The notes beneath the pieces are model-generated. The model was not told the DNA's origin and ran no database searches. It saw only the letters and a list, made by a program, of their open reading frames with translations. The position numbers were made by a program, and so were the translations under genes. This document shows positions 27,503 to 27,547 of a stretch of DNA of 64,000 bases, one piece after another; positions within the stretch are counted from its first letter, which is position 1, and each line of letters starts with the position of its first letter. Source of the DNA: Paragonimus westermani (Eukaryota > Platyhelminthes > Trematoda > Plagiorchiida > Troglotrematidae). Location of the stretch: NCBI GenBank assembly GCA_008508345.1, contig QNGE01000897.1:147489-211488 (forward strand). The letters are read 5' to 3'.

Positions 27503-27547
27503 GCACTACTGATGAGCTCTAATGAGAGCGAAACTCGAGTCTAGTGC
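27503..27547 (+). ncRNA. Hammerhead ribozyme, type I with minimal stem III
   Basis: Self-cleaving RNA. Stem I pairs GCACTA (27,503-27,508) with TAGTGC (27,542-27,547), 6 of 6. Core CTGATGA is at 27,509-27,515. Stem II pairs GCTCT (27,516-27,520) with AGAGC (27,525-27,529), 5 of 5, with loop AATG. GAAA is at 27,530-27,533. Stem III is the palindrome CTCGAG (27,534-27,539), allowing two pairs with a 2-nt loop in a monomer or a 6-bp duplex between two molecules. The cleavage triplet is GTC (27,539-27,541), so cleavage is expected after 27,541. Every conserved core base is present. Activity in vivo is inferred. Short stem III hammerheads are known to work best as dimers. Confidence 0.9.

What the first reader, a model, noticed from the sequence alone, without database searches (positions are those of the whole stretch)
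27503..27547. Intact hammerhead ribozyme inside a tRNA-derived SINE
All conserved hammerhead positions are present: CTGATGA, GAAA, a 5-bp stem II, a 6-bp stem I and a GTC cleavage site, within 45 nt. The chance of this by accident is very small, and the same 45-nt block recurs in other copies. The SINE would make an RNA that cuts itself after position 27,541, downstream of its own Pol III promoter.
Basis: partly seen in the sequence, partly recalled or inferred. Interest (0 to 1): 0.88.

Follow-up and report, generated by a model that had tools for sequence, protein, structure and literature searches.

The report
Hammerhead ribozyme in a fluke retroelement
A lung-fluke genome carries many copies of a short non-coding jumping element that combines tRNA-gene-like promoter boxes with a self-cutting hammerhead RNA; schistosomes have a known counterpart, but here the way the copies are inserted points to a Penelope-type enzyme as the mover.

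Summary
In detail: window 27503-27547 (+) holds a complete type I hammerhead core, 6-bp stem I, 5-bp stem II and GUC site. Stem III is almost absent; two strands co-fold into a double hammerhead through the palindrome ACTCGAGT. The ribozyme sits in a 432-nt non-coding element of a Paragonimus genome. Pol III A and B boxes lie upstream, but no tRNA was recognised. Copies occur head-to-tail and, in 23 of 43 classed insertions, head-to-head; the 17 head-to-head insertions with two classifiable outer ends all have one short and one ~30-nt-longer end. Exact target duplications of at least 9 nt flank 11 of 48 insertions. That is Penelope-like-element anatomy, and such elements are common in this genome. 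Schistosomes have tRNA-derived SINEs with hammerheads, so this is a new member of a known kind, with evidence on how it moves. Cleavage, transcription and the enzyme were not tested.

The parts
27230..27661 (+). one unit (432 nt) of the element; no TSD detected for this copy, long (B-type) 3' end
   Evidence: alignment to tandem copy L005
27430..27440 (+). A box TGGCGCAGTGG of a Pol III internal promoter
27475..27483 (+). B box GTTCAAATC, starting 45 nt after the A box starts
27495..27552 (+). hammerhead ribozyme with extended stem I (AAGGA/TTCTT, TAT bulge at 27500-27502)
27503..27547 (+). hammerhead core: stem I, CTGATGA, stem II, GAAA, GTC
27533..27540 (+). palindrome ACTCGAGT = stem III of a dimer; perfect in 64 of 88 copies that cover it
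27541..27542 (+). predicted cleavage between 27541 and 27542
   Evidence: position of GTC; cleavage not tested
27551..27554 (+). TTTT, possible weak Pol III terminator
27630..27661 (+). tail: present at type B 3' ends, absent at type A 3' ends (which stop at about 27629)
46969..47661 (.). tandem plus head-to-head insertion of the same family with a 9-15 nt target duplication; ribozymes with core changes
17215..17654 (.). head-to-head insertion of the same family; hammerhead with stem II down to 3 of 5 pairs
16674..17043 (.). old head-to-head copy (73-75% identity)
16376..16440 (-). fragment of an old copy (78%)
14094..14184 (+). fragment of an old copy (70%)
13963..13989 (+). 27-nt match to the element
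2621..2767 (-). fragment of an old copy (68%)

Best explanation
It is a 432-nt non-coding retroelement of a Paragonimus lung fluke, of the retrozyme / hammerhead-SINE kind, that inserts like a Penelope-like element (PLE). Steps: (1) tandem copies are transcribed, by Pol III from the A/B boxes or by read-through [inferred]; (2) two ribozymes on one multimeric RNA (or on two RNAs) pair through the palindrome ACTCGAGT and form a double hammerhead [shown as a predicted fold only]; (3) each cuts after the equivalent of 27541, releasing a 432-nt monomer, perhaps made circular by a host ligase [inferred from published retrozymes]; (4) a PLE reverse transcriptase/endonuclease copies it at a staggered nick, starting inside the template at either of two sites about 30 nt apart, often once from each target strand, which gives head-to-head copies with a tail on one side and target duplications of about 12 nt [the products are shown, the enzyme is inferred]; (5) a template longer than one unit, or a circular one, gives the head-to-tail tandems [inferred].
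For: HH9 match and intact core (53 of 88 copies pass all structural criteria). Co-fold minimum of two strands is the double hammerhead, -37.9 kcal/mol, whereas the monomer minimum, -14.6, is not a hammerhead. A/B boxes 45 nt apart. Of 46 chained insertions 3 were too old to class; of the other 43, 23 are head-to-head, 8 tandem (5 of them also head-to-head), 17 single, 0 tail-to-tail; outer ends of the 23 head-to-head insertions: 17 A+B, 0 A+A, 0 B+B, 6 with one unclassed end. Exact TSD of 9 nt or more in 11 of 48; re-paired flanks gave 0.2 on average and at most 2 in 200 trials. Published PLE anatomy: 9-bp TSD, inverted pLTR, 31-bp tail optional at one inverted pLTR, head-to-head the commonest inversion (PMC3846280 passages); a PLE protein cuts and extends both strands and starts internally (PMC11167929, main text part 1 of 2). 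PLE-type reverse transcriptases are common here: 150 of 150 scored places matched, of 12,288 first-look candidates; one 804-aa frame has RVT_1 over cut-off. A review names PLEs/Terminons as likely movers of animal retrozymes (PMC7761336 passages).
Against: No RNA data, no cleavage assay. The one PLE copy read with its repeat (L083) shows no hammerhead by pattern search and no significant similarity to the element, and in 20 other PLE loci, cut 1.5 kb either side of the reverse transcriptase match, the only significant similarity was one element fragment in L080, so no PLE partner is identified. The HH9 score is below gathering. No tRNA by covariance model. The conserved TTTT might truncate a Pol III transcript. 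The circular unit is 60-61% paired against 63-64% in shuffles, though its energy is somewhat lower (z -1.4 for L005, -2.0 for the window copy); published putative retrozymes are above 70% paired. The A/B end classes were defined after looking at the ends. The ribozyme is only slightly better conserved than the rest of the element (0.965 against 0.915-0.960 in 71 young copies; in 19 old ones 0.79 against 0.72-0.75, tail 0.88).
Confidence: 0.65

Rival explanations
1. An ordinary tRNA-derived SINE moved by a LINE, which happens to carry a hammerhead, as the SINE-like label of Sm-alpha suggests.
For: A and B boxes; target duplications of this length are also known from LINE-type insertions (15-bp TSDs of Nematostella repeats are compared with LINEs in PMC4918200, passages); schistosome Sm-alpha is called SINE-like and tRNA-Gln derived; LINE fragments seem present in the window (by eye).
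Against: The A box lies at position 201 of the 432-nt unit, not at the 5' end; head-to-head pairs in 23 of 43, A+B ends in 17 of 17 classifiable pairs, and head-to-tail tandems are not usual LINE/SINE anatomy (recalled). Ends A (..TTGAAAAT) and B (..CAGTAAT) carry no long poly-A; LINE 3' ends of this genome were not compared.
Confidence: 0.13
2. The unit is the solo pseudo-LTR or deletion derivative of an autonomous PLE family of the same genome, and not an independent SINE-like element.
For: pLTR-like anatomy; many PLE copies present; a second hammerhead family has two motifs 3.1 kb apart on one strand in C7569, about the size of a PLE unit (the repeat spacing in L083 is 2.5 kb).
Against: 16 of 16 reported HH9 genome matches lie in this non-coding element (58 candidates scored); the PLE copy read (L083) shares no significant similarity and no hammerhead with it; A/B boxes are not a known part of PLE pLTRs (recalled). 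Most PLE pLTRs of this genome were not read.
Confidence: 0.2
3. The hammerhead is a passenger: intact by recent descent, without a role in transposition (not exclusive of the other readings).
For: Little extra conservation of the ribozyme over the rest; 35 of 88 copies fail at least one criterion; for the PLE of Anolis no reads beginning or ending at the presumed cleavage site were found (PMC11167929 passages).
Against: A second hammerhead family in the same genome, without significant similarity to this one, has its own stem III palindrome in 3 of 4 members read; tandem units put two ribozymes exactly one unit apart.
Confidence: 0.15

Closest known systems
Schistosome Sm-alpha / Sj-alpha SINE-like elements (Ferbeyre 1998, Laha 2000: not read, seen as cited in PMC2770079 and PMC8490949)
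   Same: Trematode, short non-coding repeat (335 bp for W36.2_W001), tRNA-like part plus type I hammerhead, dispersed and repeated; cleavage of the Sm-alpha ribozyme is reported as confirmed in vitro
   Different: Here the ribozyme matches the HH9 model with hardly any stem III, the tRNA-like part is not recognised by the tRNA model, and the host is Paragonimus. Copy number here is not counted (41 places reported by a capped search). Whether Sm-alpha has the one-sided tail was not tested; no schistosome sequence was available
Animal non-LTR retrozymes (PMC7229834 parts 1-2 of 6 and passages; PMC4918200 passages)
   Same: Type I hammerhead, short non-coding unit, tandem dimers and more, TSD, GC below 50% (46-48% here)
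   Different: Those described there mostly have canonical ribozymes and highly self-paired RNA; here a minimal ribozyme, ordinary pairing and many head-to-head copies; circular RNA not tested
Penelope-like elements with minimal hammerheads in their pLTRs (Cervera 2014, Lunse 2017: not held, known through reviews)
   Same: Head-to-tail and head-to-head arrangement, ~30-nt tail on one side, TSD, minimal hammerhead proposed to act as a dimer
   Different: No reverse transcriptase or endonuclease frame; A/B boxes instead

Membership tests
Type I hammerhead ribozyme | conserved core CUGANGA...GAAA, NUH site, stems I and II | tested here: met
Type I hammerhead ribozyme | covariance-model score over gathering | tested here: inconclusive
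   window copy: HH9 38.1 < 52, no family over gathering; siblings L018 and L038 pass RF00163, at least 2 of 20 loci
Type I hammerhead ribozyme | self-cleavage | not testable with these tools
   needs an RNA assay
tRNA-derived SINE | internal Pol III A and B boxes | tested here: met
tRNA-derived SINE | recognisable tRNA | tested here: not met
   no RF00005 match, none by ARAGORN
tRNA-derived SINE | promoter at the 5' end, 3' end shared with a LINE | tested here: inconclusive
   A box at position 201 of 432; LINE 3' ends were not compared
Animal non-LTR retrozyme | short non-coding tandem unit with type I hammerhead and TSD | tested here: met
   none of the 30 longest stop-to-stop frames of the window (106 aa or more) lies in the unit
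Animal non-LTR retrozyme | highly self-paired unit RNA | tested here: not met
   60-61% paired, shuffles 63-64%; energy z -1.4 and -2.0
Animal non-LTR retrozyme | circular RNA in vivo | not testable with these tools
   no RNA data
Penelope-like element | RT and GIY-YIG endonuclease frame | tested here: not met
   no long frame in the unit
Penelope-like element | tandem or head-to-head units, one-sided tail of about 30 nt, TSD | tested here: met
Sm-alpha family | sequence homology to Sm-alpha | not tested
   no schistosome sequence available here

The most novel reading that the evidence does not exclude
A Pol III-type SINE head has been joined to the insertion system of Penelope-like elements: the hammerhead trims multimeric transcripts to unit (possibly circular) templates through a palindromic dimer, and the PLE enzyme primes on both target strands at two fixed sites about 30 nt apart, one per strand, so that a two-sided insertion has one short and one long end. 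The A+B rule would be a genomic footprint of that two-strand reaction.
Probability: 0.45. Interest if true: 0.62.

Novelty: new member of a known kind. Interest (0 to 1): 0.42.

Why it matters
A review proposes that PLEs/Terminons move animal retrozymes and calls the role of minimal hammerheads in these elements a mystery (PMC7761336 passages). A young, multi-copy family in which ribozyme, A/B boxes, tandems, one-sided tail and TSD can all be read makes that proposal testable by genomics alone, and adds Paragonimus to the flukes with hammerhead SINEs. A full-text search for Paragonimus with 'hammerhead ribozyme' gave 0 papers in the held library.

Tried and rejected
Rejected: chance motif (41 places); microRNA matches RF00935/RF03926 in L034 (the hairpin of a head-to-head junction); claiming selection on the ribozyme (one search shows little excess conservation).

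Rows left out: L001 (inside the window), L002 (same place as L009) and L042; the HH9-selected loci L043-L058 and, where the reference locus L005 was also left out; chains under 250 bp; chains whose best piece is under 88% identity, or with N in the flanks. One head-to-head chain counted (L007 524-1157) passes the 88% limit only by a 27-nt piece and has an unclassed end; one of the 17 A+B pairs (L027) rests on a 23-nt arm.

Full report
What was checked. The window is contig C897:147489-211488 of an 823-Mb assembly. The mitochondrial contig C9701 encodes a COX1, read with the flatworm code, that is 100% identical over 99% of the query to a sequence named Paragonimus westermani (the representative of a cluster of 9); the next best named hit is 82%. 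The PLE frame in L083 matches a P. westermani protein at 95%. So the finding lies in a lung fluke, most likely P. westermani. One other contig carries foreign-looking mitochondrial DNA, but the element is on many large contigs.

The ribozyme. Positions 27503-27547 carry the whole hammerhead core. Rfam HH9 gives 38.1 bits, below its gathering score of 52, E 4.1e-8 for 601 bases; no family passes gathering in the window. Among 20 sibling loci RF00163 passes its cut-off in L018 and L038 and misses it in L023; the other listed hammerhead matches are to HH9, all below its gathering score, and overlapping weaker matches of the same clan are not listed. In the whole genome the 16 reported HH9 matches (58 candidates scored, none over gathering) all lie in copies of the same element. 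Of 88 copies that cover the motif, 53 have an intact core, a permitted base at the cut, at least 5 of 6 stem I and 4 of 5 stem II pairs, a stem III pair and no indel; 35 fail something. The sample is mostly made of copies chosen for similarity to this one or to HH9, so this is not a genome-wide rate.

Stem III is the odd part. Between GAA and the last base of the cleavage triplet lies ACTCGAGT, a perfect palindrome, found unchanged in 64 of 88 copies. A monomer can form only one or two pairs there; its predicted minimum (-14.6 kcal/mol) is not a hammerhead, and the hammerhead fold without stem III scores -11.7, with one or two stem III pairs -9.1 or -10.4. Two strands co-fold into two complete hammerheads joined by an 8-bp stem III, -37.9 kcal/mol. 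The native four inner bases rank 12th of 256 by dimer gain. Four further RF00163 matches that I read (L084-L087, of 42 reported) show no significant similarity to the element; three of the four have a different palindrome at the same place, ACAGCTGT. For these four the co-fold minimum was not a hammerhead dimer, which warns against over-reading the folds. Dimeric cleavage of minimal hammerheads is in print (Lunse 2017: not held, cited in PMC8490949 and PMC7761336).

The promoter. TGGCGCAGTGG at 27430 and GTTCAAATC at 27475 fit the A and B box consensus (recalled), 45 nt from start to start. Such a pair (35-60 nt apart) occurs three times in the window on both strands, each time in this element, and never in 40 single-strand Markov windows of 64 kb. 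But neither ARAGORN nor the Rfam tRNA model sees a tRNA, so 'tRNA-derived' rests on the boxes and their spacing. A TTTT at 27551-27554 is conserved at 94-97% per base and starts 10 nt after 27541; the L005 copy has a second TTTT at the equivalent of 27265. If it ends transcription, Pol III would make only a ~140-nt RNA, and unit-length RNA would need read-through or Pol II. This is unresolved.

The element. BLAST of the window copy against 41 loci showed a unit from 27230 to about 27661, repeated head-to-tail in several loci with a continuous junction, 432 nt apart in L005. The 3' ends fall into two classes: A, at about 27627-27632 (..CAACTTGAAAAT), and B, at about 27652-27661 (..CATCAGTAAT). 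With a 464-nt reference made from L005, 46 insertions of at least 250 bp were chained (HH9-selected loci left out); 3 were too old to class. Of 43: 23 head-to-head, 8 tandem (5 counted in both), 17 single, no tail-to-tail. The head-to-head insertions have outer ends A+B in 17, A+A in none, B+B in none, and one unclassed end in 6. The other 20 insertions have B in 11, A in 8, other in 1. If ends were drawn independently at those frequencies, A+B would be expected in about 49% of pairs, and 17 of 17 would have a probability near 5e-6 (own arithmetic; the classes were set after seeing the ends). Exact duplications of 9 nt or more at the outer flanks occur in 11 of 48 insertions, six of them of exactly 12 nt; re-pairing the flanks gave 0.2 on average and at most 2 in 200 trials. 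The window copy itself has no detected duplication.

Reading. In a bdelloid rotifer PLE the insert ends in an inverted pLTR, has a 9-bp TSD and a 31-bp tail optional at one of the inverted pLTRs, and head-to-head is the commonest inversion (PMC3846280, passages). A purified PLE protein cuts and extends both target strands and starts reverse transcription inside the template, which its authors use to explain the tail (PMC11167929, main text part 1 of 2 and passages). The fluke element shows the same set of features without coding capacity. PLE-type reverse transcriptases are common in this genome: all 150 scored places match (12,288 first-look candidates), many in long open frames. The copy in L083 has an 804-aa frame with RVT_1 over cut-off, a GIY-YIG-like C-terminus seen by eye (recalled motif; not found by Pfam), and a 436-nt direct repeat at 99%. 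No hammerhead pattern and no significant similarity to the element was found in it, so the partner PLE is not named.

Against the reading. The unit RNA is no more paired than shuffles, with energy z -1.4 and -2.0; the ribozyme is barely more conserved than its surroundings; the assembly may misplace inverted repeats, although TSDs at head-to-head insertions (L004, L022, L026, L009, window 46969-47661) argue that at least these are real.

What is known. S. mansoni has a SINE family derived from tRNA-Gln, similar to Sm-alpha, and about 38,500 hammerhead motif candidates (PMC2770079, passages); the Sm-alpha hammerhead is reported as active and further W-element hammerheads cut in vitro (PMC8490949, section 11); Cervera 2016 treats the schistosome repeats as putative retrozymes with a full tRNA-Gln (PMC4918200, passages). 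The P. westermani genome paper gives SINEs as 0.96% and unclassified repeats as 12.97% and does not hold the word Penelope in its main text (PMC6329441, passages). No paper in the held library has both Paragonimus and 'hammerhead ribozyme'. The finding is therefore a new member of a known kind; its value is the clear PLE-type insertion footprint of a hammerhead SINE.

Noticed in passing
L084-L087 (G000:C7569, C124, C262, C402): A second hammerhead family in the same genome, RF00163 up to 47.5 bits, with stem III palindrome ACAGCTGT in 3 of 4 read; C7569 has two matches (33.4 bits each, just under the cut-off) 3,142 bp apart on one strand, as a tandem of PLE-sized units would give.
   Followed up: partly
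L063-L083: Penelope-like elements with long open frames in several score classes; some loci show inverted (head-to-head) or direct repeats.
   Followed up: partly
L060 (G000:C7067): A second mitochondrial COX1-ND1 stretch that reads with the invertebrate code and looks arthropod-like by eye: probable contamination of the assembly.
   Followed up: no
L034 1332-1405: Rfam microRNA matches (RF00935, RF03926, below gathering) that coincide with the hairpin of a head-to-head junction.
   Followed up: yes
window 23712-24633: C-terminal part of a LINE-type reverse transcriptase by eye; Pfam gives only a weak zinc finger for 23989-24633.
   Followed up: no
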